In this document: positions 8,126-30,470 of the stretch, one piece after another | Position numbering within the stretch: the first letter of the stretch is position 1 | Layout of the letters: the number at the start of each line of letters is the position of its first letter | DNA from: Pseudomonas sp. J452 | GTDB lineage: Bacteria > Pseudomonadota > Gammaproteobacteria > Pseudomonadales > Pseudomonadaceae | Length of the DNA: 64,000 nt | Assembly: GCF_024666525.1 (NCBI RefSeq) | Contig: NZ_CP088294.1 | Location: 3,658,001 to 3,722,000 of the forward strand | Direction of reading: 5' to 3' | Program-made: the position numbers and the translations under genes | Notes under the pieces: generated by a model | What the model saw: only the letters and a program-made list of their open reading frames with translations | What the model was told of the DNA's origin: nothing | The model's database searches: none

Positions 8126-10204
8126 TCAGGATTCGTGAAAGATGCCGGCGCGCAGGCCGACTCGCAGGTATTCCGCGAGACGGATGCGCAGGTTGGTGAC
8201 CCGTTGTGCGCCATACAGCTGGTGGAACACGCCCATTTCGCTCTCGTCGTCGGCGCCCTGGAGGATTTCCGCCGCGGTGGAGGTGGCGAGCTGGCCGTAG
8301 GCGGGAGTGCCGTAGCGCAGCGAGGTGAAACGCGGTGCGATGTGCCGCGCGGCCGCGCTGGAGTCGGGCTGGCAGCGATGGCGGCGGGGCAGGATCGAGT
8401 TGAACGGCAGCCAGCTGAAACGCACGCAACCGACCTGCTTGCGCTCGGCGCGTACCGGCACCGCCCAGCTGTCGGCCGGTGCCAGGGCGGCGAACAGGAT
8501 GCTGTTGGAGATCAGCCCGACCTCGCTGGTATGCAGCTTGCCGATCAGCGTGCAGGCATCCAGCGACAGCGCGGCGCCCGGTGCTTCGCCATCCATGGCG
8601 GCGAAGGCCACGCCGTCGCGGGCCGTGGCATCGATCAGGCTGTCGCTGGCCTGTACCACGGCGTGCTCGTGCGCGCGGATGGCGCCGACCAGGCTGCGCG
8701 AGATACGGGTGTGCAGGCTGGCGATCTCCAGCAGCAGGCTGGGGCTGGTGGGCTGCAGCGGTTGGCCGCCGGCATCCAGCGCGATGCCGGGCACCAGGGT
8801 GCAGTGGCTCAGTTCCAGACGGGCCAGCAGGTTGCCGGCGCCGGCCGCCACCTGCAGTGGCGCACCGCTGATCAGCAGGCCGTTGAGCAGGCAGGCGCTG
8901 TCTGCCGCGCCGCTGATGCTCAACTGGCTAAGCGCGAGGACCGGACGGCGGCCGTTGCGCGCGCGGATTTCCACGGCGCCATCGACCGCCACCTGGATAG
9001 CCAGCGCTTCCTCATAGCGGCCGTTGTCGGTGATTTCCACCACACCGTCGCCGGCGATCTCGGTCAGCGCCGCCACCAGCGTCGGCTGATCGTCCGGCAC
9101 TCGCACCAGCAGGCGGCCGAGTGGTGGCGTGGGCAGGTCGGCGCCGCGTTCGTATTCGCCGCCGCCAATATCGGCCGAGAAGCCTTCGTGCCAGGTCAGC
9201 TGCACCTCGGCGGGGTCCGGGGCGTCGCCGGGTAGGGCGATGCGCCCCAGCAGCGGATCGATGGAATAGGTGCCGTCGGCCGGTGGCGTGTGCGCCCAGC
9301 CGGCACCGTCGTCGCCAAGGTGGCAGATGCAGATCTGCTCGCGCTCGATCAGCGTGCCGTCGACCCACAGCTGCAGGCTCGGCGCTGGGTTGTCCAGCGG
9401 CGCGCCGGCATTGGCGCGCACCCCGTAATGCCGCGCCAGATGCGCCTCCAGGCGCCGGCGCGACAGCGGCCAGGGCACGTTGTCCGGCTCGGCCAGGTGG
9501 CCGATGTCGTCCTCCACCCGTGGCTTGTTGTACAGCGCCAGGTCGTGGCCCAGCGGGCTGGCCCGGTAGCGCCGTGGGCCGGCGCGCAAACAGGGCGCCT
9601 GGCTGCGCGAGTAGGCCTGGATGCGCCACAGGTGCAGGCCGACGTTGGGGATGTTGTGTCGCCCGCGACCGGTCTCGATGCGCCGCACGTCCACGCTGCG
9701 GTTGGCCGTCTCGAAGGCCGTGCCCAGCCATTCCAGCGCCTGCTCCTGGCGCAGGTCGGGGGCCTGCAGCGCCTGTGGGCGTGGGTGGTTCATATACTGG
9801 GTGGCGCACAGGCGCTGGAAGTACTCGACGGCGCGGGCGTCCCAGCCGGTGACGTCGCGGGCCAGCTGCTCCAGTACCGTGGCAGTGCCTTTGCGCCGAC
9901 GCAGGGCGATGGTGTGGGCGACTTCGGCACGCGGACTGGCGACCTTGGGCACCACCTGATGCAGGCCCTGATAGCCGATCAGGTCGCCGATGTAGGGCAC
10001 TACCCAGTCGGCGCAGGTTTCGATGAACAGGTCGTCGTAGAGCTGTTCCAGGCCTTCTTCGGCGATCCCCAACTGCTCCGCCAGCAAGGCGACCAGCTCC
10101 TCCAGCGGACCGCGCTCGAAACCCTGCGAGGCGGCCAGCTCGGCATCTCTTATGCGATGAATGGCCGGCAGCAGGGCGAACAGTGATTGCGCGTCCAGGC
10201 TCAT
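8126..10204 (-). CDS. gpI-like phage tail/baseplate protein of the eCIS (Afp12-like)
   Basis: A 692-residue protein whose N-terminal 220 residues resemble phage tail protein I-type baseplate components (SLFALLPAIHRIRDAELA, DDLFIETCADWVVPYIGDLIGYQ, LRRRKGTATVLEQLARDVTGW). The remainder looks like beta-helical or beta-rich repeats. ATG at 10204 is chosen because it overlaps the preceding stop (ATGA); the frame stays open far upstream, but that part overlaps the preceding baseplate gene. It probably caps the baseplate wedge and carries or docks the following beta-helix protein. Confidence 0.8.
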   Translation of the reverse strand: MSLDAQSLFALLPAIHRIRDAELAASQGFERGPLEELVALLAEQLGIAEEGLEQLYDDLFIETCADWVVPYIGDLIGYQGLHQVVPKVASPRAEVAHTIALRRRKGTATVLEQLARDVTGWDARAVEYFQRLCATQYMNHPRPQALQAPDLRQEQALEWLGTAFETANRSVDVRRIETGRGRHNIPNVGLHLWRIQAYSRSQAPCLRAGPRRYRASPLGHDLALYNKPRVEDDIGHLAEPDNVPWPLSRRRLEAHLARHYGVRANAGAPLDNPAPSLQLWVDGTLIEREQICICHLGDDGAGWAHTPPADGTYSIDPLLGRIALPGDAPDPAEVQLTWHEGFSADIGGGEYERGADLPTPPLGRLLVRVPDDQPTLVAALTEIAGDGVVEITDNGRYEEALAIQVAVDGAVEIRARNGRRPVLALSQLSISGAADSACLLNGLLISGAPLQVAAGAGNLLARLELSHCTLVPGIALDAGGQPLQPTSPSLLLEIASLHTRISRSLVGAIRAHEHAVVQASDSLIDATARDGVAFAAMDGEAPGAALSLDACTLIGKLHTSEVGLISNSILFAALAPADSWAVPVRAERKQVGCVRFSWLPFNSILPRRHRCQPDSSAAARHIAPRFTSLRYGTPAYGQLATSTAAEILQGADDESEMGVFHQLYGAQRVTNLRIRLAEYLRVGLRAGIFHES

Positions 10205-12984
10205 GGCAGCACCTCCAGTTCCAGCGGCGCAGCGTCCAGGGTCAGCAGCTCTGCCGCCTGCGGCAGGCCGCTGAGTGAGGCCACCGGTAGCGCGGCATAC
10301 AGGCGTGGCGCCAGGCCCGGCGGCTGGCCCTGGCGATACAGGCGGCTGACCTGCACCGCCTGCACCCCGGCGATGCCGTGGGCCACCGCGGCCAGCTCGT
10401 CGACCGACACGGTCTGGCCGAAATCGCGCTTGGCGAAGCCGAAATGTTCGCGCAGCGCGGCCTCCACCTGGCCCAGCACCAGCTCGCCGTCGTATTCCGC
10501 CAGCACCTTGATCGCCAGGCGGCAACGGAAGCGCGCATCGGCGTAGCCGACCATGCGCAGCGGTACCAGCGGGTCGCCGTAGGCCAGCAGCGCGGCGCGC
10601 AGCGAGGCATACACCGTGTCGCCCTCGGCCACCGTCGCGCCTTGCGCACCGGCCAGGCTGAGGAACACGCCACGCGCCGGACCGCTGGGAATCCACAGGG
10701 CGTGGGCCTTGTCGATACCGGCGAAGGCGCGGGCGAAGTTGGCGTAGTCGGCGATGGACACGGCGCGGTCCAGGGTCAGCACCGTCAGCGGCGCGTTGCC
10801 GCGGGCCTGGGCCAGCGACTCGCCATCCTCGCCACCGCTGGCGGGCACCGGGTTGACCACTTCGCTGACGCCAAGCGGTCGCGAGAGCAGGGTGGTGAGC
10901 TTGCCGGCGGCCAGGTTGCCGGCGCCGCCGAGGCCCTTGCGGTAGCGCACGCGCACGTTGCTGTGGCCGCTGGGCAGGCGCGCGCCCTCGTTGCCGTCGC
11001 CAAACTGCAGGGTGGTGTAGCCGGCCTCGTCCTGGCTGGTTTCGTAGCTGCGCGCATTGGCCGCGGCGTGGTACAGGGTCGGCGCCTCGCTCCACAGCAC
11101 ATCGTTGATCCGCAGCTCCAGGGACGAGGCGCGCCCACTGGGCGTGCTGGCGCTGAGGTAGGTCAGTGGCGCCTGGTTTAGCGCGAAGCGCTGGTTGGCC
11201 TGGGCCGCGTTGCCGTCGCCGAGGATCGCCTCGACCGTCTCGCCGTGGCTGGCTGGGGCGACGTTGGCGTTGATGCGCAAGGTGGCGCGCTCGAACACAT
11301 GCTGCAAGGGCGTCTGCAGCTGGAGGCTGGTGCGGTCGCGGTCGTGACTGAGGGCATCCTCGGTGTCGCCGATAAAGGCGATCTGGCGCACCAGCGGATC
11401 GTCCTTGTGGCCCACGGCCAGGCCAATCTGGCTGGCCTTGGCCTGCAAGCGGCCGCTGCGCCCGTCGCGATCCAGCACCTGCAAGCGCAGGTTGACCGAC
11501 GCGCTGCCCAGCAGCCCGGCAAACTCCTCGGCGCCGAGTGCCACCGGGGTGCTGCCGAACAGGCGGTCGGCGGCGCTGAGCATAAACAGTTCATCGCCTT
11601 GCTCCAGTGCCACGCTGCCGCCCAGGTCCAGCTGCAGGGCCAGGCCGCTGGCCAGCAGGGCGATGCGCTGGCGCCGGCCGGACAGCGCCAAGGCCTGGCC
11701 CGGCTGCAGGCCGTCGACGCGCTGGTCGAGTTCGAGGAGATCGCCATACGCCGGGTGGAACAGCGGCGTGGCCAGCGTCTCCAGCGCCTCGCTGTGGGCC
11801 AGCACCAGGGTCTGGCGAAGCGGGAAGGTGGTGGTGCTGAGATTTTCGTCGGTGTCCGGGGTGATGCGGGTGATCTTGCCGGACAGGGCGAAAGCACTGC
11901 GGGTGCGATGGATAACCCGCGTGGCGCGGTACAGCTCGACATAGCCGGGCAGGTCGGCGCTGCCGTAGGCCGGGTTGTTGGAGACCAGGGCGAACCAGCT
12001 GCCGGCGACAATCTTGGCGTTGTCGGTGTCCAGGTCGACAGCGGCCGGATCGACTGTGAAGTTGGCCCAGCGCCAGTTGTTGCTGGTGCTCTTGTCGATC
12101 TGGTGGCCGATCTGCGGGTTGTCCGGGCCGAACAGGTTGGGATCGGGCGCGTTGTGGCCGAACAGCGCGGTGCGCTGGCGCAGGGCAAACACCCGGGCGC
12201 CGGCGCCACTCGGGCTCATGGCCGGGAAACCGCTGCCCAGCGGGTGATTCCACAGCAGTCGGGTGCGCCCATTCGCGCTGTCCGCCTCGACCTTGGCCAG
12301 CACGCGCACGTCCCAGCGCTCGCTGCCAGGGTCGCTGAGACGCTCGTCGCCGACGATGAGGATGGCGTCGCCCACCTGCAACTGGTGAAGAACCCCGGCC
12401 AGCCACAGCTCGGTGTCGCCCTTGCGCGGCCGCCAGGCGCGGCTGGCCTGGGCCGGGATGGCGTTCCAGGCGGCGCGGGCCGGTGCCGGGGCGAGGGTCT
12501 CGAAGGTCTGCGCCTGTTCGTCCTGGCCGGGCACGCTCTGCACCTTGCTGCCGACTGGAATGACGATCGGCTCGCTGGGCATGCCCGGCGCGCTCTGCAG
12601 GGTGAAGGCCAGGTGGGTGGAGGCGGCCACGCCGGGTGCCGGCCGATAGCCGATCAGCCGCGCCATCTGCCGCACCGACAGCTGCTCGGTGGCGGTGCGC
12701 AGGTAGTGCTCCTGGGCGTAGCGCTCGGTGTAGAAGCCGAGCACGTCCAGCGAGCAGGCCAGGGCGTCGGACAGCGCCAGAGTGAAGTCGCTGGCCTCGC
12801 GGCTGGTGAAGGCAGCCAGGGCCGGATGTTCGGCGCTGGACAGGCGCGCCTGCAGGCTGTCCATAAAGTCGCCATGGCGGCCGATGCGATAGTCGATCGC
12901 CGGCAGCCCCGGCGGGTTGTCGATGCGCCGTGGCGTATCGGCGTCCACGCCGGTGCAGCAGTCACACTCGGGTTTGCTGGCCAT
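10201..12984 (-). CDS. eCIS putative baseplate assembly protein, second copy
   Basis: A 927-residue protein of the putative baseplate assembly family (gpJ/Afp11-like wedge proteins). The N-terminal region has SDFTLALSDALACSLDVLGFYTERYAQE followed by RQMARLIGYRPAPGVAAS. The C-terminal gpJ-like part includes VLTLDRAVSIADYANFARAF and a final VQVSRLYRQG. A GGAGG site six bases before the ATG supports start 12984; an in-frame GTG one codon earlier is possible. A cysteine cluster (CDCC, about residues 8-11) is unusual. The gene overlaps both neighbours, and with the next gene upstream in transcription (12984-15554) it forms a tandem pair of wedge proteins. Confidence 0.85.
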   Translation of the reverse strand: MASKPECDCCTGVDADTPRRIDNPPGLPAIDYRIGRHGDFMDSLQARLSSAEHPALAAFTSREASDFTLALSDALACSLDVLGFYTERYAQEHYLRTATEQLSVRQMARLIGYRPAPGVAASTHLAFTLQSAPGMPSEPIVIPVGSKVQSVPGQDEQAQTFETLAPAPARAAWNAIPAQASRAWRPRKGDTELWLAGVLHQLQVGDAILIVGDERLSDPGSERWDVRVLAKVEADSANGRTRLLWNHPLGSGFPAMSPSGAGARVFALRQRTALFGHNAPDPNLFGPDNPQIGHQIDKSTSNNWRWANFTVDPAAVDLDTDNAKIVAGSWFALVSNNPAYGSADLPGYVELYRATRVIHRTRSAFALSGKITRITPDTDENLSTTTFPLRQTLVLAHSEALETLATPLFHPAYGDLLELDQRVDGLQPGQALALSGRRQRIALLASGLALQLDLGGSVALEQGDELFMLSAADRLFGSTPVALGAEEFAGLLGSASVNLRLQVLDRDGRSGRLQAKASQIGLAVGHKDDPLVRQIAFIGDTEDALSHDRDRTSLQLQTPLQHVFERATLRINANVAPASHGETVEAILGDGNAAQANQRFALNQAPLTYLSASTPSGRASSLELRINDVLWSEAPTLYHAAANARSYETSQDEAGYTTLQFGDGNEGARLPSGHSNVRVRYRKGLGGAGNLAAGKLTTLLSRPLGVSEVVNPVPASGGEDGESLAQARGNAPLTVLTLDRAVSIADYANFARAFAGIDKAHALWIPSGPARGVFLSLAGAQGATVAEGDTVYASLRAALLAYGDPLVPLRMVGYADARFRCRLAIKVLAEYDGELVLGQVEAALREHFGFAKRDFGQTVSVDELAAVAHGIAGVQAVQVSRLYRQGQPPGLAPRLYAALPVASLSGLPQAAELLTLDAAPLELEVLP

Positions 12985-15554
12985 CACTTGCCTCCATGCA
13001 GATTGAGCCGCAGCACGCCGTGCTCCGGAAAATTCGGATCGTTGTCGAGGCGCACAATTTCCAGGCGGCCGAGTGCCATGAAGCCATCGGCCAGCGGTTT
13101 GGGATCGACCTGGCCCTGGCGCTGGAAGCGCGTCACCTGCACCGCGGCCACGCCGGGCACGGTGCGCGCGGCGGCGTACAGCGGGCTGAGGAAGAAGGTT
13201 TGGCCGAAGCTGAAGTTGTCCGGGTGGAACAGGCCGCGTGTGCCGTCGCTGCGCTGGCGGCTGCCGAGCACGTCGAGCAGGCCGTGGCGTACATCGCTGC
13301 GGAAGTAGCCGGCCTTGACGCAGACCAGCAGGTCGATCTCCAGCGATACATGCAGCGGCTCGTTGACCCGCAGGTCATGGCCGGCCATGCGGTAACGGTC
13401 CAGGTGCTCGACCACGTTCTCGGCGAATGGCACATCGACCGGTTCACCGCCCTCGCGATCCACCGTGACGAACACCGTGTGCCAGCTGCCGGTCCAGCGC
13501 AGCCCGGCGGCGGCGCGCTGCACGCCATCCAGGCGTTCGGTGACTTCGGCGTAGTCGGCCGGGGTCACCGCCCGTTCCTGGGTGCGGAATGCCTGTGGCG
13601 CCGCGCGGCGCAGCTCGGCCTGGTTCTCCGCGGCGATGCCGCCGTGGGCCGGCAGCGGGTTGCTCACCGCCTCGATGCGCGCCTCGGCGCTGACCACATG
13701 GGCAATGCTGGCCGCGCCGACATTACCGGCGGGGCCGTTGCCGACCCGGTAATAGGCGCGAAAGTCCATGCCGCTGTCCGGGCGCCGGCCGTGGCGGTCG
13801 TCGCCGAAGCGCAGGTGGGTGCTGCCGTCGTGCTCCGCCTCGACGACGAAATGGCGGTCCTCGGCCTTGCTGTCCAGCAGGTTGCGCTGCACGTTCCAGT
13901 GGTCCGGGCTGGCCTCAAGTCCGCTTTCCAGGCGCAGGGCGGGGATCGCGTCGGCGGCGCGCCAGTGCAGGGCGCTGCTGGCCGAGGCCTGGGGGTCGAA
14001 CAGCACCCACTCGCGGCGCAGCAGACCGCCATCCAGCACCCGCCGGACGACGCGGCCGCGGTGGGTCACCGGGCCCTCGGCCAGTAGCGGGCGATAGCGC
14101 GGCGGCAACGGCTCCGGCGCCAGGCGCTGGCAGGCGCCGCCGCTGGCCGGGTATTGCATCAGCGGTGCCGGTACGCTGCCCAGTGCCTCGCCGATCACGC
14201 TGCGGCCGTGGTCGACCAGGACGATATTGCCCAGCGCCACGCTGACATCCTCCAGTTGCAGGCTGCCATGAGCCTCGTCGGTCTCGCTGGAGATGCACAG
14301 GGCAAAGGGCAGGGCGTCGGCAGCGTGCCAGGCAATCTCGGTAATTTCGCTGTCGTCCAGCGGATCGAGCAGTGGGTCCGTGCCGTCGAAGGCACGCACC
14401 TGGGTCAGACGCACCGCGTGGCGCCGCGCAGGATCGGCGTCGGCCGCCTCGCCGGTGAGCGGGCCGAGCACTTCCTGCAACACCAGCACGTCGCCCACCG
14501 CCAGGTCCGGCAGGTGGCCGCGCAGGGTAGCGGCGGTGGAGCCGCTCGCCAGGCAGCAGCGGGCGTCACTCCAGGTGTGGAAGAACAGGCGGTTGTGTGC
14601 CTGGTTCAAGCTGGCCTGTTGCATCGGCTCGAACACCAGCGGCGTGCTCTGCAGCGCCTGGCGTTCCTCCGGCGAGTCGCTGAGGATGCGCGGCGGCACA
14701 CCGGGTACGCGGGTATAGAAGCGCAGCCCGTCCGGCAGCGGAAAAGGCCCGCCGCTGACCTGCAGATGTAGCCAGGCGCGGGCGTTGCAGCCTTCGTGCA
14801 GCTGGTAGTCCACCAGCAGGGCATGGCGGCGCAGGCTGCTGCGCTTGCGCGCGGTGTGCAGGTAGGCCTCGGTGGTGACGGCGTCGAGCTGGTAGTGCTG
14901 CAGATCGCCGACATAGGCGATCAGCTCGCCCAGGGTGGTGGCCAGGTCGGCCGGGCTGCGGTCGCGCCAGCCGGGCATCTGCCGGGCCAGGCGATCCATC
15001 ACCAGGCGGCGCAGGCTGGCGTAGTCGCGGGCCAGGTAGTTGATGTCCGGCGCTGGCGTGGCGGGCTCGGCACAGTCCTGCTGCGGGCGGCAGTCGAAAT
15101 CGCTGGGGCACTCGACCTTGAAGGCGAAGTCCACGGCCGACAGACGCGGGTCGAAATCCGCCAGCGGCGTGTCGAGGGAGCCGGCTTGGCGCAGTTGCAG
15201 GTGATAGGTGGAGTGGTCGCCATCGGTGTCGGTGCGCAGCACCAGCACATGCTCGGGTTCCACCAAGGCCAGGAACAATGCTTGCTCGGCGGCGCTGGCC
15301 TGGGCCGGTGGGGCGCTGGCGATGCCGAGCCACTCGACGCTCACCCGGCGCACGCGCTCGCCACCGCTGATATGCAGGTTGTCCACGCTCAGCCCGGCAG
15401 GCACCGGCTTGAGCAGACGAACCAGCAGGGTGCGCTGGCGCGGGCTGCCGGGCGGGGCGTCGAGGTCGAGCACCTCCAGGTAGTCGATGCCGTTGAGGCT
15501 GGGGTGGGCATCCACCAGCGCGCGGCGATTTTCTTCGCAGCAGTGGTAGATCAT
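12984..15554 (-). CDS. eCIS putative baseplate assembly protein, Afp11-like
   Basis: An 856-residue wedge protein. It has DINYLARDYASLRRLVMDRLARQMPGW, then LGELIAYVGDLQHYQLDAVTTEAYL, and a C-terminal gpJ-like domain with ERAVTPADYAEVTERLDGVQ and VQVTRFQRQG. These are the hallmarks of the large putative baseplate assembly proteins of Afp/PVC-type particles. It shares its C-terminal organisation with the next gene, suggesting an old duplication. The ATG overlaps the gp25 gene stop by four bases. It likely links hub, sheath and fibre in the baseplate. Confidence 0.88.
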   Translation of the reverse strand: MIYHCCEENRRALVDAHPSLNGIDYLEVLDLDAPPGSPRQRTLLVRLLKPVPAGLSVDNLHISGGERVRRVSVEWLGIASAPPAQASAAEQALFLALVEPEHVLVLRTDTDGDHSTYHLQLRQAGSLDTPLADFDPRLSAVDFAFKVECPSDFDCRPQQDCAEPATPAPDINYLARDYASLRRLVMDRLARQMPGWRDRSPADLATTLGELIAYVGDLQHYQLDAVTTEAYLHTARKRSSLRRHALLVDYQLHEGCNARAWLHLQVSGGPFPLPDGLRFYTRVPGVPPRILSDSPEERQALQSTPLVFEPMQQASLNQAHNRLFFHTWSDARCCLASGSTAATLRGHLPDLAVGDVLVLQEVLGPLTGEAADADPARRHAVRLTQVRAFDGTDPLLDPLDDSEITEIAWHAADALPFALCISSETDEAHGSLQLEDVSVALGNIVLVDHGRSVIGEALGSVPAPLMQYPASGGACQRLAPEPLPPRYRPLLAEGPVTHRGRVVRRVLDGGLLRREWVLFDPQASASSALHWRAADAIPALRLESGLEASPDHWNVQRNLLDSKAEDRHFVVEAEHDGSTHLRFGDDRHGRRPDSGMDFRAYYRVGNGPAGNVGAASIAHVVSAEARIEAVSNPLPAHGGIAAENQAELRRAAPQAFRTQERAVTPADYAEVTERLDGVQRAAAGLRWTGSWHTVFVTVDREGGEPVDVPFAENVVEHLDRYRMAGHDLRVNEPLHVSLEIDLLVCVKAGYFRSDVRHGLLDVLGSRQRSDGTRGLFHPDNFSFGQTFFLSPLYAAARTVPGVAAVQVTRFQRQGQVDPKPLADGFMALGRLEIVRLDNDPNFPEHGVLRLNLHGGK

Positions 15555-15919
15555 GGCGTCGCTCCCTGGACGAAGCTTTCGTCACGGCGCTGGTTGGTGC
15601 GGCGGATGCGGTACTGCACCTGCACCGCCAGACGTGCCTCGACGGCGCTGACCTCGACCGACTCGACCAGGATCAGGTCGGCCAGCCATTGCTGCAGCGC
15701 ACCCTGCACGAGGAACTGCACGGTGGCGGCTAGCTCCGGGCTGTTGGGCGCAAACACCAGCTCGCGCAGGCCGCTGCCGAAGTCCGGGCGCATCACCCGT
15801 TCGCCCGGTGCGGTAAACAGCACCTGCTCGATCAGGCCGCGGATCCAGCTGGCTTCATCGGCCTCGCGGCTGCGGCCGTGGCCATCGAAGGCATAGGGAA
15901 AGTGCAGGCGCTGGGTCAT
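15551..15919 (-). CDS. GPW/gp25 family baseplate protein (Afp9-like)
   Basis: A 122-residue protein with the gp25 pattern: SWIRGLIEQVLFTAPGERVMRPDFGSGLRELVF, then a helix and a C-terminal strand with VSAVEARLAVQVQYRIRRT. gp25 proteins form the inner baseplate ring from which sheath polymerisation starts. The ATG at 15919 has a nearby purine-rich ribosome site and lies two bases after the PAAR stop; the longer open frame upstream is PAAR shadow sequence. Confidence 0.92.
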   Translation of the reverse strand: MTQRLHFPYAFDGHGRSREADEASWIRGLIEQVLFTAPGERVMRPDFGSGLRELVFAPNSPELAATVQFLVQGALQQWLADLILVESVEVSAVEARLAVQVQYRIRRTNQRRDESFVQGATP

Positions 15920-15921
15920 GG

Positions 15922-16242
15922 TCAGCTCCCGATCACGCGTGTCTGCGCGGCCACCGGCAGCAGCGGTGTGCCGTTGGGCGCGCAGACCGCCTGGCTGTCC
16001 ATCAGCACCACGGGCTGGCCGTTGGAGAGCACCCGGGTCGCGGCCACCACCCACTGGCCGGTGACACAGGGCACCGGGCTGCCGGAGACGTTGAACGGGC
16101 AGCCGGCGATCACGTAGGGGCCGCTCATCAACACGGTTGGCTGGCCGCTGACCAGCACGCGCGGGTTGGGCACGGTCGGATTGGCGGTGCCGCCATGGGC
16201 GCAGAGCACGCTGGCACCGACATGCAGGAGGGGGCCGGGCAT
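15922..16242 (-). CDS. PAAR-like tip protein of the eCIS (Afp10-like)
   Basis: A 106-residue protein rich in Pro-Gly and short strands (GPLLHVGASVLCAHGGTANP, VSGQPTVLMSGPYVIAGCPF, CVTGQWVVAATRVLSNGQPVVLMDSQAVC), the composition of PAAR-type cones that sharpen the spike. Conserved Cys/His positions could hold the stabilising metal. GGAGGG lies eight bases before ATG 16242, supporting this start over longer upstream frames. Confidence 0.82.
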   Translation of the reverse strand: MPGPLLHVGASVLCAHGGTANPTVPNPRVLVSGQPTVLMSGPYVIAGCPFNVSGSPVPCVTGQWVVAATRVLSNGQPVVLMDSQAVCAPNGTPLLPVAAQTRVIGS

Positions 16243-16363
16243 CTCAGCAACCCTCCGCGTGCCATATAGCGCGTGGCCGTGCACGGCTCGGGCGGCGCTG
16301 CTGCGTTGCGTATCTGTCCATACCTGCCTCCTTGTTCCGCATTCCACGGGAACTGCCTGCGAC

Positions 16364-16377
16364 CGCCCGCGCGGGCG
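16364..16377. repeat. 14-base perfect palindrome inside the eCIS operon
   Basis: CGCCCGCGCGGGCG lies just before the spike gene stop-codon boundary on the minus strand, in the 137-base gap between the spike and PAAR genes. This is the largest gap within the structural part of the operon. It could be an RNA stem that tunes expression of the downstream baseplate genes; no T tract follows, so it is not a classic terminator. Confidence 0.45.
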
Positions 16378-16379
16378 AC

Positions 16380-16889
16380 CTAGATCACCGTCAACGCGCC
16401 GTTATTGATGGTTACCGCCGGGCCCACCAGGGTGAGCATGGCGCCCTTGCCGTTCTGGATATAAATGCCGGTGTCGTTGACGATCAGGGTCGCCCCGGTG
16501 GCGCTCTTGAGCATGATTCCGCCGGTCGGGCCGGGCAGGTCGGAGATGGTCAGGCCGTTCTGCAGCGGGGTTTGCAGGGTGATGGCCTGCATGCCGGGCG
16601 GGGTGGCCAGGGCCAGCGCGGGGATCTCCGCCGCGCTGCCCCAGAAGCAGCCGACCCAGATCGGGTGGTCCGGGTTGCCCTGTTCGAACTCCACCCATAC
16701 CCCGGAACCGATCATTGGCAGCGCCACCATGCCGTTCTGGATGCCGGCGATCGGCACGCAGGGCATGGCCCAGCTGGCCGGGATCAGCCCGGCCACATCG
16801 GGCACCTGCACCTGCAGGCGGCCCTGCTGCATGGGGTCGATGTTGTTCAACACCATGCCGCGGTACTTGCCGTAGTAGCGCTGGCTCAT
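16380..16889 (-). CDS. gpV-type spike protein of the eCIS
   Basis: A 169-residue protein. It begins with an OB-fold as in T4 gp5 and phage gpV (YYGKYRGMVLNNIDPMQQGRLQVQVP, then SGVWVEFEQGNPDHPIWVGCFWG). It ends in short beta repeats (LKSATGATLIVNDTGIYIQNGKGAML) expected of a trimeric beta-helical needle. In Afp/PVC the spike Afp8 carries hub and needle in one chain; here the needle is a separate gene overlapping the hub gene by four bases. Confidence 0.9.
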   Translation of the reverse strand: MSQRYYGKYRGMVLNNIDPMQQGRLQVQVPDVAGLIPASWAMPCVPIAGIQNGMVALPMIGSGVWVEFEQGNPDHPIWVGCFWGSAAEIPALALATPPGMQAITLQTPLQNGLTISDLPGPTGGIMLKSATGATLIVNDTGIYIQNGKGAMLTLVGPAVTINNGALTVI

Positions 16890-20404: not shown

Positions 20405-20418
20405 GTTCGCTCCTGCCT

Positions 20419-21828: not shown

Positions 21829-21852
21829 GCCTCGGGCACGCTACCCATAGAC

Positions 21853-23382: not shown

Positions 23383-23642
23383 GGCGCACCTCGTTCGGTT
23401 GTCGGCAGCAACTGACTGGCGACCGCCTGGCCAAACTGCTCGCTGCTGGTGTGGGGCGCGAGTCGGATGGGGGCAGGCCGGTAACGTGCCTGCCGCTCAT
23501 GGCCCTGTAGCGCCGCCAGCCCGCCGTCAGCGGCGAGACGCTGCTGCAGCTCGGCCTGCAAGGCTTCGGCGAATGTGGCGGCGTCCTCTGGGGCGATGCC
23601 ACGCAGCACCAGGCGATCGATATGCAGCACGACACGGCTCAT
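23379..23642 (-). CDS. small conserved-looking eCIS protein
   Basis: An 87-residue soluble protein (MSRVVLHIDRLVLRG..., then FAEALQAELQQRLA). The N-terminal strand-turn-helix resembles small proteins that follow the eCIS ATPase gene in other loci. The start at 23642 is favoured by the ATGA overlap with the ATPase stop; an ATG two codons earlier is possible. It might be a chaperone or adaptor for the cargo genes that follow, judged from position alone. Confidence 0.75.
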   Translation of the reverse strand: MSRVVLHIDRLVLRGIAPEDAATFAEALQAELQQRLAADGGLAALQGHERQARYRPAPIRLAPHTSSEQFGQAVASQLLPTTERGAP

Positions 23643-25537
23643 ACCCACCCCCGTGTTTCCGCATCGGAAATCGGTTTGTCGCGTTTACCTGCCTCGATAT
23701 GCGCGGCCCGCAGCAGATGGCGCATGCCCACCGCCGTTCCGCCCTCGGCGGCGAGGAAGGCGGCGCCGAGGGCGATGTTACGGATGGTGCCGCCCGGTAC
23801 GGACAGGTTCGCCAGCTTGCGGTAGTCCAGCGGCTCCAGCGGTGTCGCCGCCGGAAACACGCCATGCCAGAGCGCCTCACGCTGGATCTGGTCGGGGAAG
23901 GGGAAGTGCACCACGAAGCGCAGGCGCCGGGCGAAGGCGCTGTCCAGCGCGGCTTTGTGGTTGGTGGTGAGGATGGCCAGGCCGCGATAGGACTCCATCC
24001 GTTGCAACAGGTAGCTGACTTCGATGTTGGCGTAGCGGTCGTGACTGTCCTTGACCTCGCTGCGTTTGCCGAACAGCGCATCGGCCTCATCGAATAGCAA
24101 AATGGCGCCGAGCTCTTCGGCGCTGTCGAAGACCCGGCGCAGATTCTTTTCTGTTTCGCCGATGTACTTGCTGACCACGGCCGACAGGTCGATGCGGTAG
24201 AGCACTAGGCCCAGGGTATTGGCCAGCACCTCGGCGGCCAGGGTCTTGCCGGTGCCGGAGTCGCCCCAGAACAGGGTGGCGATGCCCAGGCCACGCGAGC
24301 TTTTCTCGGCAAAGCCCCAGTCGTGATGCACGGTGAGGCGATGCTGGGTATGCACGGCGATCTGCTGCAGGATCCGCCGCTGCGCTTCGGGCAGTACCAG
24401 ATCGTCCCAGTCGGCCCGTGCTTCTATACGCTGAGCCAGTTCGCTCATGCTCGGTGCATCGGCCCGGCAGGCGCGGTGCAGCTCGGCCAGGTCGAGCTCT
24501 GCGCCAAGCCGCGCCGCGATGCTGGCGATGCGCCGCGCGCCGAGGCGGTATTGTCCGGCCAAGCTGTCGAGGGTCGGCGCCAGTTCGTCGTCCCGTTGAC
24601 CCAGGGCCTCGCGCCAGAGCCGGCGTTGCTCGGGGACGTCGGGGCGCTCGACGATGAACGCCTCGCCATCCAGCGCGAGGGGCGCCCGTGACGCGATGAT
24701 CAGCAGTCCGCCAATACGTTCGACGAAGCGTTCCAGTGTTTTGCTCTCGTCATCGCGTAGTTCGATCAGCAGAGCACTGCCGAGCAGGACGGCCTCGCGC
24801 TGCCAGAGCGTGGCCAGTGCTGCCTGCTCGTGGGCCGTGGCGGGAATGTCCACGGCGCGCAGACAATGCAGCGCGACGCCCAGACGCCGGGCAATGTCGG
24901 CGGCGACATCCTGTTGCCCCTGCGGGTCATCGCCGGCCAGCAGGATGGCTCTGGGCCTGGCGCCATCACGCTGCAAGTGGCTGCAGGCGTGCGCACTGAC
25001 AGCAGCATGCGCCCGGCACATCAATCCGGGAGGCGGCAGTGGCGACAGCAAGGGTTGCAGGCGCTGATCCAGATGGTTGAGACCCGCCAGGTAGTGCAAC
25101 ACGCGCTCATCCATGCGTACGCGTCCGCTGGCTAGCCCGCTACTCTCGTCCACCTCCAGCAAGCGCCAACGGCGCAGCGGTTCCGACGGAACCAGAGCAT
25201 CCCAGTGGGCGGAGGGCAACAGGCTCATGGCCAGACCAAACGTCGCCCAGGGGCGGCCTGCCTGGCCATTGGCCTGGGCGCAGAGCGGGCCCAGGCGGGC
25301 GTCCATCTCGACGCCCGCGACGAGCAGCAGGAGGTCGCGCTCGAAGTCGCTCAGTTCGAACAGCTGTGCCAGGGTATCGATGGCCGGCGGCGCGCTCATT
25401 GCCGCACGCAGCTCTGCGCCGCGCATCCGCTCATCCTGCGCGTCGCTGCCGTCGAGCAAGGCCCGCAGACGGGCGAACTCGGCCGCCAGCAACTGCTGGT
25501 TGGCGCTCGACCAGTCCATGGCTGCCGGGGCGTTCAT
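23639..25537 (-). CDS. AAA+ ATPase of the eCIS (Afp15-like)
   Basis: A 632-residue protein. The C-terminal AAA module has Walker A GDSGTGKT (425-432), Walker B LLFDEADALF (480-489), sensor 1 LAILTTNH and an arginine finger region ARRLRFVVHF. The N-terminal half includes a degenerate nucleotide fold (ILLAGDDPQGQQ near 198-209), so it is a winged, two-module ATPase like Afp15/PVC15. Such ATPases are required for assembly or cargo loading of eCIS particles. Overlaps of four bases join it to the DUF4255 gene and the next small gene. Confidence 0.93.
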   Translation of the reverse strand: MNAPAAMDWSSANQQLLAAEFARLRALLDGSDAQDERMRGAELRAAMSAPPAIDTLAQLFELSDFERDLLLLVAGVEMDARLGPLCAQANGQAGRPWATFGLAMSLLPSAHWDALVPSEPLRRWRLLEVDESSGLASGRVRMDERVLHYLAGLNHLDQRLQPLLSPLPPPGLMCRAHAAVSAHACSHLQRDGARPRAILLAGDDPQGQQDVAADIARRLGVALHCLRAVDIPATAHEQAALATLWQREAVLLGSALLIELRDDESKTLERFVERIGGLLIIASRAPLALDGEAFIVERPDVPEQRRLWREALGQRDDELAPTLDSLAGQYRLGARRIASIAARLGAELDLAELHRACRADAPSMSELAQRIEARADWDDLVLPEAQRRILQQIAVHTQHRLTVHHDWGFAEKSSRGLGIATLFWGDSGTGKTLAAEVLANTLGLVLYRIDLSAVVSKYIGETEKNLRRVFDSAEELGAILLFDEADALFGKRSEVKDSHDRYANIEVSYLLQRMESYRGLAILTTNHKAALDSAFARRLRFVVHFPFPDQIQREALWHGVFPAATPLEPLDYRKLANLSVPGGTIRNIALGAAFLAAEGGTAVGMRHLLRAAHIEAGKRDKPISDAETRGWV

Positions 25538-26844
25538 GTGATGGTCAGCCGCAGATTGAGGAAGGTCGGCGGCGTGGTGGCGTGATCGACGATGGGGCTG
25601 TCGACCCCATCGATGCGCAGGCGCACCAGGTGCTCGCCGACTTCGGCTTGCTCGATCAGGAAATCCAGCGTGTCGGTCGGTGCGGCGAAGCTTTGTGGCG
25701 GTACCTCGCGCTGGCCGACCAAGAGAGTGGCACGCTGACCGGCGCGCAATTCGGGAGTGAACTCTATGCTTACCAGGGCATCGCCGTCGCCGTCACGCGC
25801 CACGTTCTGCGGCAGATTGGTGATGTCCGGAGCGAGGGTGAAAGCCAGGCGATTGCTCTCTCTGGCGAGCGTTTCCCCGGGACGGATCAGCCGCGCATTC
25901 GCCTCATAGACGCCCACCGGGAAGTCATCCGCGCGCGACACGGGGATCAGCAGTTCCATGCGCTCACCCAGGTTGGCACCGCTGGCGGCCAGGACTTCGC
26001 TCACTTCATAGCGGGGGTTGCCGATGCGCACTTCACGGTCGCTGCCGTTCAGGTGGTGGCCGCGCAGCACGATGCTCTGCCCGAGCCGGGCCACCGGCTG
26101 GGCTCCACTTGGCAGGATGGCTTCCAGGGTCGGCAGGGCCGGGATCAGACTGGGCGAAACCACCACGCCACGCTCGCGCCCCGAGAGCGGGTCGACCTCT
26201 CCGCGCGTCAGCACCGGCAAGGGGGCGAGGGCAGGGCGGGTGGCCTCGATCAGCACCACGGATACCTGGTAGGCAGCGGTGGGGCGTAGGCTGGACTGGG
26301 TAGCCGACCACAGCTTGGAGCTTTCCTCGGTGTTGAGCGTCTGCGGCGTGATACGTAGCAACTCGAACTGATCGGCCAGACCACACTCGGCCAGCGCCCG
26401 CAGGGCTGGCGGCAACACCACGCCGAGGTCGGGTGAGGGGGTGAGGGCGGTACGGATCATCTCGCGGGTGATGATCGGAAACTCATGCATCAGCTGCATG
26501 GCATAGCCGAGCAGGATTTCGGCGTGCAGATCGCCGCCGCTGTAGGCGGAAATCAGGTAGTACAGGTCCAGGGCCAGCGGCTGGTTGGTCAGGCGCTGGC
26601 GGCCAGCGGAGTCATGGGAGGGCAACGCCTGATTGCGCCAGCTGGCGTTGGGCATTGCCTGATAAAGGAACAGGTTGAGCTGGCTGGATTCGGTGCCATC
26701 GGCCGGCACCACGCGGTCGGGCGGCAGCACGCTGACGCTCACTGTGCTGCCAAGGATGCCGGCGACATTATGGTTGACCAGGCCATCGTTGAGCCGGTCG
26801 CGCAGCACGGCGGTGACGCCGGCCAGAGCCAAGGCGGTACTCAT
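25534..26844 (-). CDS. DUF4255 cap/terminator protein of the eCIS (Afp16-like)
   Basis: A 436-residue protein. The N-terminal 190 residues are the DUF4255 (Pvc16 N-terminal) domain: VTAVLRDRLNDGLVNHN, SSQLNLFLYQAMPNASWRN, LALDLYYLISAYSGGDLHAEILLGYAMQ. In Afp/PVC this domain caps the sheath-tube end and sets particle length with the tape-measure protein. The C-terminal part carries two or more beta-sandwich, IPT-like repeats (SIVLRGHHLNGSDREVRIGN and later strands). The ATG overlaps the stop of the preceding frameshifted gene (ATGA). Confidence 0.9.
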   Translation of the reverse strand: MSTALALAGVTAVLRDRLNDGLVNHNVAGILGSTVSVSVLPPDRVVPADGTESSQLNLFLYQAMPNASWRNQALPSHDSAGRQRLTNQPLALDLYYLISAYSGGDLHAEILLGYAMQLMHEFPIITREMIRTALTPSPDLGVVLPPALRALAECGLADQFELLRITPQTLNTEESSKLWSATQSSLRPTAAYQVSVVLIEATRPALAPLPVLTRGEVDPLSGRERGVVVSPSLIPALPTLEAILPSGAQPVARLGQSIVLRGHHLNGSDREVRIGNPRYEVSEVLAASGANLGERMELLIPVSRADDFPVGVYEANARLIRPGETLARESNRLAFTLAPDITNLPQNVARDGDGDALVSIEFTPELRAGQRATLLVGQREVPPQSFAAPTDTLDFLIEQAEVGEHLVRLRIDGVDSPIVDHATTPPTFLNLRLTIT

Positions 26845-27664
26845 CGACCGTCTCCCTTGCGCTTGGCCAGGTAGTCATCCAGCGACAACGGTGCCGCGCC
26901 TTTGCGTGACGTGCGCTTGCTCGGCGCACTTTCCTGGATGGCAGTGACTTCGATGCGGCCGATATGAATATGCACTTCGTCCGGCTGCGGACTGGGTGCG
27001 GTGGGGGGGGCGATGCGAGCGGGACGGCAGTAACCGCCTGCCTGGGCGCAACCGGGCGCGGCGAGAGCAGGGTGGCCGGCAAGGGCAGGGTGCCGCTGTC
27101 ATCCTCGAAGACAGGTTCTTCGGTCACGGCTGATTGATTGTGTGCCGAGCCAGCCAGCGGGCTCGGCGCATGCCCTGCGGCTGTTTGCCTCGGACCTTGT
27201 GGGGAAGCGGCATCCGCTTGCTGCGCAGAGTGGTTCGCCGTTGCCGTTCTTATCGGCTGCGTTATCAAACTAGGGGGCACAGCCAGCGAGGAGGGAGCAT
27301 GCGTATCCGTTTGCGCCCGGTTGGACAGGGGGGACGCCGTCGCTGGTTCGTCATGTGCCTGAAAAGCACGGGGGGCGACGGCGGGCGTCTGCTTATCCGG
27401 TACCTGCGAATTCATCGCCTCGCTGTCCGGCAACCTATGCGGTGGGCGGGCGGGCAGCCTCGCGGCGGTTTCGCTCCCCGGAGCAAAAACTGGCTGCTCC
27501 GTCGCAGTAGCTTGCACCATCGGCAAATCCGGCTGATCCGCACTGGACTCAAGCGGCTCCACTCGCTCCGGGGCGCTCTGATAGGGCAGTGCCGCAGGCG
27601 AACGCAGGGTAGCGCCGCGCTGACCGCTGGCCTGTGCGGCCAGACGCTGGAACAGGCCACTCAT
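26841..27664 (-). CDS. eCIS linker protein interrupted by a frameshift at a run of eight C
   Basis: ATG 27664 overlaps the preceding stop (ATGA). The first 219 codons encode MSGLFQRLAAQASGQ and then a long Pro/Ala/Gln-rich, disordered region. After eight consecutive C on the coding strand (plus-strand G at 27003-27010), the original frame runs through implausible sequence into the next gene. The -1 frame instead encodes a tail with DEVHIHIGRIEVTAIQ and LSLDDYLAKRKGDGR, whose TGA overlaps the DUF4255 ATG exactly. A IxIGRIEV tail is recurrent in eCIS and phage-like loci. One extra C, or -1 slippage, would restore a 274-residue product. Sequencing error, phase variation and programmed slippage are all possible. 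Confidence 0.8.
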
Positions 27665-28347
27665 GGCGCCACCCTGGTCAGATAGGCGCTGCGCCGCGTG
27701 GCGCTGAGTGCCAGGATCTGGGGCTCGCTCCAACCGTAGGCCTGGGCGAGCAGGTGAACCTCGTTCAGCAGCTGGCGGGCGCTGACATCGACTTCTTCCC
27801 ACAGATAGCCCGCCACATCGAAACAGGCCTCGCCACCCTGGCCACAGGTCGGGCACTGGAAGGCCAGCGACAGATCGGCCCAGGGGTCGGCATCCTCCAG
27901 TGCCGCCTCAACCAGCTCACGGCGGATGTCCGAAACGCATGCATCTTCGGCACAGCCCAGCAGCAGTTGTTGCGCGGCCGACTCCCGGTCGGTGAGGTTG
28001 GCAACAGCAGCCAGATCGCGACTGGTTGGGCAACGAAAACGCTGCCCGGCCACTTCAATGGAATCGGGAGGTGGCTGCATGGGCGGCAACTGCTCCGGCA
28101 GCAGCTCGAACTCCATACGCTCGCCACAGGCGGGACAATCCAGCCACAACGGCATGCGGCTGCCGAAGCTGCGCCAGCGCAGGCGCATCAGGGCCGCATG
28201 GCACTCGCCCAGCGGCCGGTCCGCCAGACTCTCTGCCGGCAACTGCGGAGCGGCCTGGGCGAAGAGCAGCAGCGCGCGGTCGAGCGGATGCCGGGCCGCG
28301 CCATGCTCCCAGAGCGCCAGCAGCTGTGCTGAAGTCAGCGGCAACAT
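27661..28347 (-). CDS. T4-type baseplate chaperone/zinc-site protein of the eCIS
   Basis: A 228-residue protein of the T4 baseplate hub-chaperone group seen after tube genes in contractile systems: LLALWEHGAARHPLDRALLLFAQA and DRPLGECHAALMRLRWRSFG. It has two CxxC pairs (CPACGE near residue 74 and CPTCGQ near 166), which probably bind zinc. A C-terminal segment VSARQLLNEVHLLAQAYGWSEPQILAL matches the motif shared with phage gp-type proteins that act on the tape measure or hub. It is separated from the tube gene by five bases. Confidence 0.8.
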   Translation of the reverse strand: MLPLTSAQLLALWEHGAARHPLDRALLLFAQAAPQLPAESLADRPLGECHAALMRLRWRSFGSRMPLWLDCPACGERMEFELLPEQLPPMQPPPDSIEVAGQRFRCPTSRDLAAVANLTDRESAAQQLLLGCAEDACVSDIRRELVEAALEDADPWADLSLAFQCPTCGQGGEACFDVAGYLWEEVDVSARQLLNEVHLLAQAYGWSEPQILALSATRRSAYLTRVAP

Positions 28348-28352
28348 GCTGT

Positions 28353-28877
28353 TCAGGCCGGCTCGGTGTAGCTGGGCTCGCTGGGTTCGCTCACGTCGTA
28401 GTCGCGCTCCCAGCCCTCGTTTTCCAGCTTGATGGTCTGGATGGCCACCGCATTGGCGTTAGCGTCCAGGTCTGGCATCGCCTGGAACTCCGACACCCAG
28501 CAACGGAATACCTTGTAGGCGAGGGCGAGCTGACCGGCCTCGTTGTAGACCTCGATGATCAGGTCCTTGCGGAAGTCCTTGAGCGATACCTCGGCACCCA
28601 GCCCGGCACCGAAATTCCACACCTTGTTGGCCCACTTTTCGAACTCGGTGTCATGGGTGACACCGCGCTCCAGGGTGATGGCCTCGAACTTGGTGCGCCC
28701 GGGCGATTTGCGCGAGGTGGATGGGTCGCCACCTTCGCGGTGCTCGACCAACTCGGTGCTGCGCTTGAGGGCGCCCACCTTGCTGATGCCGGCGACATAG
28801 CGGCCATCCCACTTCACCCGGAATTTGAAGTTCTTGTACGGATCGAAACGCTGTGCGTTGACGCTGAACTGAGCCAT
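28353..28877 (-). CDS. inner tube protein of the eCIS (gp19-like)
   Basis: A 174-residue tube protein: FDPYKNFKFRVKWDGRYVAGISKVGALKRSTEL, ITLERGVTHDTEFEKWANKVW, and FRCWVSEFQAMPDLDANANAVAIQTIKLENEGWERD near the C-terminus. These are the conserved segments of T4 gp19/Afp1/5-type tube subunits, which stack as hexameric rings. A GGAG site eight bases before the ATG is consistent with high expression. Only one tube gene is visible, while Afp/PVC loci usually carry two. Confidence 0.95.
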   Translation of the reverse strand: MAQFSVNAQRFDPYKNFKFRVKWDGRYVAGISKVGALKRSTELVEHREGGDPSTSRKSPGRTKFEAITLERGVTHDTEFEKWANKVWNFGAGLGAEVSLKDFRKDLIIEVYNEAGQLALAYKVFRCWVSEFQAMPDLDANANAVAIQTIKLENEGWERDYDVSEPSEPSYTEPA

Positions 28878-28889
28878 GGTCTGGTTCTC

Positions 28890-30470
28890 CTAGACGTCGA
28901 TCTGGCCGGCCATCTGCTGCAGCTTGATGACCACGAACTCGGCGGGTTTGAGCGGGGCGAAGCCAACGAGAATGTTCACCACACCTCGATTGATATCGCT
29001 CTGCGTGGTGGTTTCGCGGTCGCATTTGACGAAGTAGGCGTCGCGCGGACTGGAACCCTGGAATGCGCCCTGGCGGAACAGGTCCTGCATGAAGGCGCCG
29101 ATGTTCAGGCGAATCTGCGCCCACAGCGGCTCGTCATTGGGCTCGAACACCACCCACTGGGTACCGCGGAACAGACTTTCCTCGAGAAACAACGCCAGGC
29201 GGCGGATCGGCACGTACTTCCACTCGGAAGCCAACAGGTCCGCACCCGCCAACGTGCGCGCGCCCCAGACCAGATGACCGGCCACGGGGAAACTGCGCAG
29301 GCAGTTGAGGCCCACCGGGTTGAGCACACCGTTCTGCCGGTCGGTCATGGTGTAGCTGAAGCCCTGCACCCCGGAAAACGAGGCCGCCAGGCCGGCTGGG
29401 GCTTTCCATACGCCGCGCTGCACATCGGTACGCGCCATGATCCCGGCCACCGCACCGCAGGGAGCGAACTCGGCCAGGCGATTCTCGGACAGCGGATCGG
29501 CCATGCGCAGACGCGGGTAGTACACCGCCGCGTTGATCGCATCATCGTTGCCGATCGTGCCGCGCAGCGCGTTCACCCCGTCCTCGGCGTCGCTGATGGC
29601 CGTACTCGGGCTTGCGGTCCAGGCCGCAGGGGCGTCGATGATCAGTACCGCGCGGCGCGTTTGGCAGTAGCTCGCCGCCGCCGCCAAAGTGGCAGGATCG
29701 AGGTCGGCGTCACGGGTGAGGGGAGGAATGCACAACAGGTTGAACAGGTCGGCCGCATCCAGCGCGAAGATGCCAGTGCGCTGGTCTTCGTCGCCAGTGA
29801 TTTCGGCGTCTCCGATGGGGTCGCCATCCTCACCGAGGACGCCTGCCGCCGTGGCTGTGCCGTCGTCATTGGCTACGGTCAGCGTGCCGTCGGTGGGGCT
29901 TTCGTCAACCGGTGCCGAGGCCTGTACGTTGACCAGTGCGGACTGCTCGTTGAGCACCGTGTCGACAAAGCGCGGGCTGAGCGGATCGACCGAGAGGTTG
30001 CGAAACACCTCAGACGCAACAGTCACAGTGCCCCCGGGCCGGTCCAGCTCTTCGATCAGCAGATTGAACAGCAGCGGATCGGCAGGATCGCGCGTCAGGT
30101 GATCGACCGTGGCCTGCAGGCGGCTGCCCCAGACGCCGGGACTGGCGGCCTCGAGCAGCAGCGAACCGCCCGCAGTTGGTAGCTCAAGCGTCGCGCTAAC
30201 AGCCGCGTTGGCTACCCGAACGATCAAGGCGTCGCTGCCGCCATGCTGGAAGAACTGCAGCACCGCATAACTCAGGGTGCTTGGCTGCCAGAGACCGCCA
30301 AACAGCCTGGAATACTCGGCGAAACTCTGGACTCGCACAGGGTCATTGACCGGACCGCGTAGCGCGCGACCGATGAACGCCGTGATCGAGGTAGCGACGC
30401 CGGTAATACTGCGCACGCCGCTGGGCACTTCTTCGATATAGACGCCTGGATAACTCAGGTTGGAAGGCAT
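28890..30470 (-). CDS. contractile sheath protein of the eCIS
   Basis: A 526-residue sheath protein. The N-terminus (SYPGVYIEEVPSGVRSITGVATSITAFIGRALRGPVNDPV, then FAEYSRLFGG) and C-terminus (ARTLAGADLLASEWKYVPIRRLALFLEESL, NILVGFAPLKPAEFVVIKLQQM) are diagnostic of the phage tail sheath family. The variable middle domain (residues about 190-300) would face outward. It is the first gene of the operon, with a GAGGAG ribosome site nine bases before the ATG. One sheath gene is present, against up to three in Afp. Confidence 0.96.
   Translation of the reverse strand: MPSNLSYPGVYIEEVPSGVRSITGVATSITAFIGRALRGPVNDPVRVQSFAEYSRLFGGLWQPSTLSYAVLQFFQHGGSDALIVRVANAAVSATLELPTAGGSLLLEAASPGVWGSRLQATVDHLTRDPADPLLFNLLIEELDRPGGTVTVASEVFRNLSVDPLSPRFVDTVLNEQSALVNVQASAPVDESPTDGTLTVANDDGTATAAGVLGEDGDPIGDAEITGDEDQRTGIFALDAADLFNLLCIPPLTRDADLDPATLAAAASYCQTRRAVLIIDAPAAWTASPSTAISDAEDGVNALRGTIGNDDAINAAVYYPRLRMADPLSENRLAEFAPCGAVAGIMARTDVQRGVWKAPAGLAASFSGVQGFSYTMTDRQNGVLNPVGLNCLRSFPVAGHLVWGARTLAGADLLASEWKYVPIRRLALFLEESLFRGTQWVVFEPNDEPLWAQIRLNIGAFMQDLFRQGAFQGSSPRDAYFVKCDRETTTQSDINRGVVNILVGFAPLKPAEFVVIKLQQMAGQIDV

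What the first reader, a model, noticed from the sequence alone, without database searches (positions are those of the whole stretch)
26841..27664. Eight-C run splits a conserved eCIS protein: phase switch, slippage or error
Upstream of the run the frame encodes the N-terminus; downstream only the -1 frame encodes the IHIGRIEV tail, and that frame ends exactly on the next start codon. Homopolymer C runs are classic sites of slipped-strand switching and of transcriptional slippage. If real, it could vary particle production.
Basis: partly seen in the sequence, partly recalled or inferred. Interest (0 to 1): 0.8.

Follow-up and report, generated by a model that had tools for sequence, protein, structure and literature searches.

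The report
Frame break at C-run, likely artefact
A run of eight Cs splits the reading frame of one gene of a bacterial injection-particle cluster, but intact relatives and several unrelated genes broken the same way in this genome point to a miscounted or one-off slipped run rather than an evolved on/off switch.

Summary
In detail: a C8 run (minus strand, 27010-27003) lies inside one gene of an eCIS cluster in a Pseudomonas near P. guryensis and P. alcaligenes. Upstream of it the frame encodes the conserved N-terminus; only another frame encodes the conserved IHIGRIEV...SLDDYL tail, which ends in an ATGA overlap with the Pvc16 cap gene. A switch is not supported. Of 84 relative loci with the tail, 80 have start and tail in one frame, 2 are unresolved, 2 disturbed (one by an assembly gap); no G/C run over 7 was seen in the gene. 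The nearest named relative, P. guryensis, is intact with a shorter run. Tail codons are under purifying selection in the tail frame (dN/dS 0.09; 1.07 in the other frame), so the break is very recent, bypassed or not real. The 14 other shared eCIS genes compared are intact. Four unrelated genes elsewhere in this genome are also broken at G/C runs (C6, G7, G7, G10), though most runs that could be judged keep their frame. MutS and MutL look full length. Best reading: a run-length miscall in the assembly; close second, an ordinary recent slippage indel in a C-rich, loosely constrained linker. A switch or recoding site is possible but unsupported.

The parts
26841..27664 (-). split eCIS gene: N-terminal motif, Pro-rich linker, C-terminal IHIGRIEV/SLDDYL tail; 824 nt, not a multiple of three
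27003..27010 (-). C8 run where the frame is lost
27011..27664 (-). upstream piece in frame 0 (218 aa, N-terminal motif and linker)
26841..27002 (-). conserved tail in the -1 frame; stop overlaps the ATG of the next gene (ATGA)
26768..27002 (-). continuation of frame 0 past the run, overrunning the Pvc16 start; no sign of selection in this frame
   Evidence: dN/dS 1.07 in this frame
25534..26844 (-). Pvc16 cap protein gene (Pvc16_N)
27661..28347 (-). T4_baseplate-like gene directly upstream
   Evidence: 23.2 bits, just under the Pfam cut-off of 24.5
28353..28877 (-). tube protein (Phage_T4_gp19)
28890..30470 (-). sheath
23639..25537 (-). AAA ATPase
10201..16889 (-). spike and baseplate genes: Phage_base_V, GPW_gp25, two Baseplate_J

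Best explanation
The gene is a normal, conserved eCIS gene whose long proline-rich linker is C-rich. The C8 run is one of the runs such a linker readily makes, and its length was most likely miscounted when this genome was assembled, so the cell carries an intact gene and no switch exists at this site. Shown: the run, the break, intact relatives, selection on the tail frame, other breaks at G/C runs in this genome. Inferred: that the cause is a miscall and not a real indel. The gene's likely role, an adaptor with two short docking motifs (N-terminal helix, C-terminal strand and helix) joined by a flexible linker and working near the cap end, is inferred from gene order and motif layout only.
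For: Relatives: tail found in 84 of 92 loci; in 69 of the 84 start and tail share a frame by script, in 11 more by reading; no G/C run over 7 seen in the gene. P. guryensis is intact with a shorter C run at the site. Tail dN/dS 0.088 in the tail frame, 1.07 in frame 0. The 14 other shared eCIS genes compared with P. guryensis match in one frame. Four other genes of this genome break at G/C runs: ApeI/AMP-ligase at G7 (own open frame 424 aa; 560-736 aa in the 13 near orthologues found among 19 other genomes, one 95% identical); alpha/beta hydrolase at G7 (Abhydrolase_1 split 1-80 and 79-243; own 215 aa, two relatives 289 and 291); PHB depolymerase at C6 (pieces 94% and 96% identical to residues 1-162 and 162-301 of one intact 301-aa protein); metallophosphoesterase and nSTAND6 at G10 (one open frame of 1091-1141 aa in three relatives). 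mutS and mutL match their families end to end without stops, so a mutator is not indicated.
Against: Most long runs here that could be judged keep their gene in frame: C9, G9, C10, G8 and G11 in five genes by reading, and 25 of the 27 runs of exactly 7 that the script could judge, of 63 examined. The genome is one contig at 100% completeness. The excess of broken runs over relatives is weak: scored alike by one script, 3 of 35 here against 1 of 111 (runs of 6 or more, p 0.04), and 2 of 34 (p 0.14) if L128, which I judge no real break, is dropped; runs of 5 show no excess (p 0.73). That script flags neither the split gene nor L129 as a break. The metallophosphoesterase gene also ends early in some relatives (361 aa in two), so its split may be biological. 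No reads were available.
Confidence: 0.5

Rival explanations
1. A real, recent slipped-strand indel: the sequenced strain carries a one-off frameshift in a loosely constrained linker, removing the tail and making ribosomes overrun the Pvc16 start. Ordinary loss-of-function mutation, not a switch.
For: Breaks fall on G/C runs, the classic slippage sites, in several genes. The linker is weakly constrained (dN/dS 0.595). A metagenomic homologue, P0008, also seems to lose frame in the linker. Most long runs that could be judged are read in frame. In P. aeruginosa mutation accumulation indels fell mostly in homopolymer tracts (PMC8115180, passages).
Against: Tail codons show no relaxation, so the event must be very young; the same holds for the PHB depolymerase, 94-96% identical to an intact protein on both sides of its break. 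mutS and mutL look intact.
Confidence: 0.37
2. An evolved phase-variable contingency locus: the C run gains and loses bases reversibly and switches the tail, and perhaps Pvc16 coupling, on and off, so that some cells make defective particles.
For: Tract within the coding sequence whose length sets the frame. Translational overlap with the cap gene. The same genome has runs of 10-11 beside or within restriction-modification and STAND genes.
Against: No run over 7 seen in the gene in the 84 relative loci. Eight is short next to the 10-11 runs elsewhere in this genome. The run count is ordinary for the genus. Metabolic genes are broken the same way.
Confidence: 0.06
3. Recoding rescue: RNA polymerase or ribosomes slip on the run (C_CCC_CCA is in phase for a -1 shift) and make some joined protein.
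For: Heptamer in phase (reading). Tail still under selection. Low-level frameshifting on a G run that rescues an indel is described for another gene (PMC5009743, passages).
Against: No downstream stem beyond chance (z -0.30). Two-frame layout not conserved. The heptamers named as highly shift-prone in E. coli in the passages read are other ones.
Confidence: 0.05

Closest known systems
Homopolymer length errors / frameshifted genes in assembled bacterial genomes (recalled)
   Same: Single conserved gene broken at a G/C run; relatives intact; several such genes in one genome
   Different: Reads not available, so the error is inferred
Slipped-strand phase variation at homopolymer tracts (recalled; paper listing)
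   Same: Homopolymer in coding sequence whose length sets the frame
   Different: Tract not conserved and short; length variants could not be looked for
Programmed -1 frameshifting in phage tail chaperone genes (recalled)
   Same: Gene near tube and sheath genes; in-phase X_XXY_YYZ heptamer
   Different: Relatives have one uninterrupted frame; no stimulatory structure found; protein type differs
eCIS of the AlgoCIS/PVC/Afp kind (PMC8894135, passages)
   Same: Sheath, tube, spike, gp25, baseplate J, AAA, Pvc16 and eCIS_core genes present
   Different: The split gene's family matched no Pfam, no informative PHROGs and no PDB sequence

Membership tests
eCIS gene cluster | sheath, tube, baseplate (gp25, J), spike, AAA ATPase, Pvc16 cap, eCIS_core cargo | tested here: met
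eCIS linker family (N-motif, Pro-rich linker, IHIGRIEV/SLDDYL tail) | N-terminal motif and tail between T4_baseplate-like gene and Pvc16 gene | tested here: met
   both motifs present but in two frames; 84 of 92 relative loci have the tail
Phase-variable contingency locus | tract kept in relatives | tested here: not met
   no G/C run over 7 seen in the gene in 84 relative loci (a gap hides part of L027)
Phase-variable contingency locus | length heterogeneity within or between isolates | not testable with these tools
   one genome per species held; no reads
Phase-variable contingency locus | frame set by tract length | tested here: met
   true of any coding homopolymer
Programmed -1 ribosomal frameshift | in-phase slippery heptamer | tested here: met
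   C_CCC_CCA by reading; rule recalled
Programmed -1 ribosomal frameshift | downstream stimulatory structure | tested here: not met
   z -0.30, 73 of 200 shuffles fold at least as well; pseudoknots not tested
Programmed -1 ribosomal frameshift | conserved two-frame layout | tested here: not met
   80 of 84 relative loci in one frame, 2 unresolved, 2 disturbed
Transcriptional slippage site | mixed RNA lengths at the run | not testable with these tools
   no RNA data

The most novel reading that the evidence does not exclude
The C8 run is a young phase-variable tract that switches the tail of a conserved eCIS linker protein, and through the ATGA overlap the dose of the Pvc16 cap protein, so that a clone makes both complete and defective particles.
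Probability: 0.06. Interest if true: 0.7.

Novelty: not a real feature. Interest (0 to 1): 0.15.

Why it matters
If the switch were real it would be a phase-variable eCIS; in three paper searches on eCIS (with phase variation, frameshift, pseudogene) I saw no listed title about that, but these cover open-licence papers only and were judged from listings. As it stands the value is a caution: a homopolymer break in one assembly is weak evidence for a switch, and four other breaks show that this genome should be checked at G/C runs. A side result is a widely conserved, unnamed eCIS protein with two end motifs and a variable proline-rich middle, worth a gene-removal test.

Tried and rejected
Viral-contig scan for the intact homologue P0003: 15 stretches matched a pattern, none encoded a relative. 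Pfam and PHROGs on intact homologues: no useful family. Profile of 70 relatives against PDB sequences: no match. AlphaFold model of the P. guryensis protein: mean pLDDT 56, only two end helices; Foldseek against PDB: nothing, as expected of so weak a model. A first codon-score classifier of runs did not recognise my two known cases as coding and was dropped. A first N-terminal profile failed, being seeded by 3 sequences. L027 (gap of Ns) and L081 (several breaks) were read as uninformative; L066 and L069 stayed unresolved. Script-flagged breaks that I dropped on reading or did not follow: L128, L131 and L180 at runs of 5 (viewed), one window run of 5 at 23648, and the flagged runs of relatives (12 of 5 bases, 1 of 6). 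L136, where a gene ends 17 nt past the start of a G8, was not resolved. An earlier test mixing hand-read and scripted counts (p 0.005) was set aside for a like-for-like one (p 0.04 or 0.14); for this I lowered the miscall reading from 0.55 to 0.5 and raised the real indel from 0.32 to 0.37. Mutator idea: mutS and mutL look intact. Chance excess of the run: rejected.

Full report
Observation. The minus strand carries C8 at 27010-27003. The gene starts with ATG at 27664. Its frame stays open through the run to a stop at 26768; the tail VHIHIGRIEVTA...SLDDYLAKRKGDGR lies in the -1 frame and stops at 26841 in an ATGA overlap with the next gene. An intact homologue, P0003, hits the genome in two overlapping pieces in different frames. 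The run is not an excess: 1 against a mean of 3.73 in shuffles of the window, and 21 runs of 8 or more genome-wide, within the 0-84 seen over the 119 genomes of the genus searched, own included.

Setting. Pfam finds sheath, gp19-type tube, a T4_baseplate-like protein (just under its cut-off), Pvc16_N and an AAA ATPase; Phage_base_V, GPW_gp25 and two Baseplate_J proteins; and three eCIS_core proteins. The cluster is an eCIS. The nearest named relatives by tube protein are Pseudomonas guryensis SR9 (99%) and two P. alcaligenes strains (95%). Compared with P. guryensis, 14 of 14 other shared genes from the sheath to 4949 match in one frame over at least 97% of their length; the three eCIS_core genes there differ, and the 89-aa gene 23379-23648 was not compared.

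Relatives of the split gene. A search with the upstream piece found 9 homologues, 8 of them full length with the tail in one frame. One, P0008 (203 aa), looks frame-shifted in the linker, at a place where its relative L005 shows no long C run; its own DNA was not held, so this is an inference. In 92 loci around related tube genes (80 from the genome collection, 12 from congeneric genomes; L004 and L108 are one and the same, so there is at least one duplicate) the tail was found in 84. In 69 of the 84 start and tail share a frame by script; in 11 more by reading; L066 and L069 are unresolved; L027 has a gap of Ns in the linker and L081 several breaks. No G/C run over 7 was seen in the gene in these 84. 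In P. guryensis the gene is intact; at the aligned site it has a shorter C run, in an interval whose length differs from the window's by a non-multiple of three. An alignment of 70 relatives shows a conserved N-terminal motif (MSxFLxRLAxRAxG), a variable proline-rich middle and a conserved tail.

Age. Between the window and P. guryensis the tail has 12 synonymous and 4 non-synonymous changes read in the tail frame (dN/dS 0.088), against 1.07 in frame 0. The linker is loose (0.595) and five neighbouring genes tight (0.023-0.152) (all). The break is thus very young, not real, or bypassed.

Error or mutation. I fetched stretches around the other 20 runs of 8 or more (18 stretches) and around 63 of the genome's 73 runs of exactly 7. 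By reading, five genes keep frame over C9, G9, C10, G8 and G11. Of the 63 runs of 7, the script placed 25 in one coding frame, flagged 2 as breaks and could not judge 36. Four other genes are broken at G/C runs. (1) An ApeI/AMP-ligase gene at G7: 424 aa open here, 560-736 aa in the 13 near orthologues (67-95% identical) found among 19 other genomes, P. guryensis included. (2) An alpha/beta hydrolase at G7 whose two pieces match Abhydrolase_1 1-80 and 79-243; two near relatives have 289 and 291 aa. (3) A PHB depolymerase at C6: the pieces are 94% and 96% identical to residues 1-162 and 162-301 of the intact protein P0010 from Aquipseudomonas campi. (4) A metallophosphoesterase-nSTAND6 gene at G10: one open frame of 1091-1141 aa in three relatives, but only 361 aa in two others, one of which ends near an A11 run, so this one may be a true switch.

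How unusual this is. Scored alike by one script, runs of 6 or more break in 3 of 35 judged cases here and 1 of 111 in relatives' loci (p 0.04); without L128, which I judge no real break, 2 of 34 (p 0.14); runs of 5 show no excess (p 0.73). That script flags neither the split gene nor L129 as a break, and relatives' runs were sampled in eCIS regions. So the statistics are weak; the weight lies on the clear cases 1-3, where genes of ordinary metabolism with intact relatives are broken. MutS and MutL match end to end without stops. Together with selection on the tail this favours a run-length miscall, with a recent slipped indel close behind; the long runs kept in frame argue against a generally poor assembly.

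Recoding. The run is in phase for C_CCC_CCA, a -1 heptamer by the recalled X_XXY_YYZ rule. The 73 nt downstream fold no better than shuffles. The review passages read (PMC5009743) name other heptamers as strongly shift-prone in E. coli, and describe an indel in a G run rescued by low-level frameshifting, so slight rescue is possible.

Consequence if real. The tail would be lost and ribosomes in frame 0 would overrun the Pvc16 start by 77 nt, which could lower cap protein by disturbing coupling; this is inference. In AlgoCIS, removal of the cap adaptor Alg16B, a different protein, gives misassembled particles (PMC8894135, passages).

Print. Three searches listed 1, 10 and 6 papers; no listed title is about phase variation or frame switching of an eCIS gene. 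Of those papers I saw passages of PMC8894135 only; the rest I saw as listings. PMC5009743 (found) and PMC8115180 were seen in passages.

Noticed in passing
genome C1:1539450 (L129:3001), L134:3001, L139:3001: Runs of 10-11 G/C lie in or beside defence genes: metallophosphoesterase-nSTAND6 (frame broken at G10), the HsdS stop/HsdM start overlap (G10), an NgoFVII-like nuclease (G11). Candidates for real phase variation or for miscalls.
   Followed up: partly
genome C1:1705205 (L171), C1:220614 (L158), L140:3871: ApeI/AMP-ligase, alpha/beta hydrolase and PHB depolymerase genes broken at G7, G7 and C6.
   Followed up: yes
genome C1:15098 and C1:4759225: Homopolymers of 18 and 29 G in a one-contig genome, unusually long, in no clear coding frame.
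   Followed up: no
19127-23382: Three eCIS_core proteins, one with a YkuD L,D-transpeptidase and one with a polysaccharide deacetylase domain; different genes stand here in P. guryensis while both flanks are conserved: a swappable accessory module.
   Followed up: partly
relative loci L003-L115: The split gene's family is widespread beside eCIS tube genes (records titled Proteobacteria, Nitrospira, cyanobacteria and others) and has no Pfam or PDB match.
   Followed up: partly
G034 (unnamed congeneric genome): A one-contig genome with no C8 run at all, the only such one of 119, perhaps a sign of truncated homopolymers in that assembly.
   Followed up: no
genome C1:4339985-4340890: A second metallophosphoesterase-like match in this genome with one TGA inside.
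   Followed up: no
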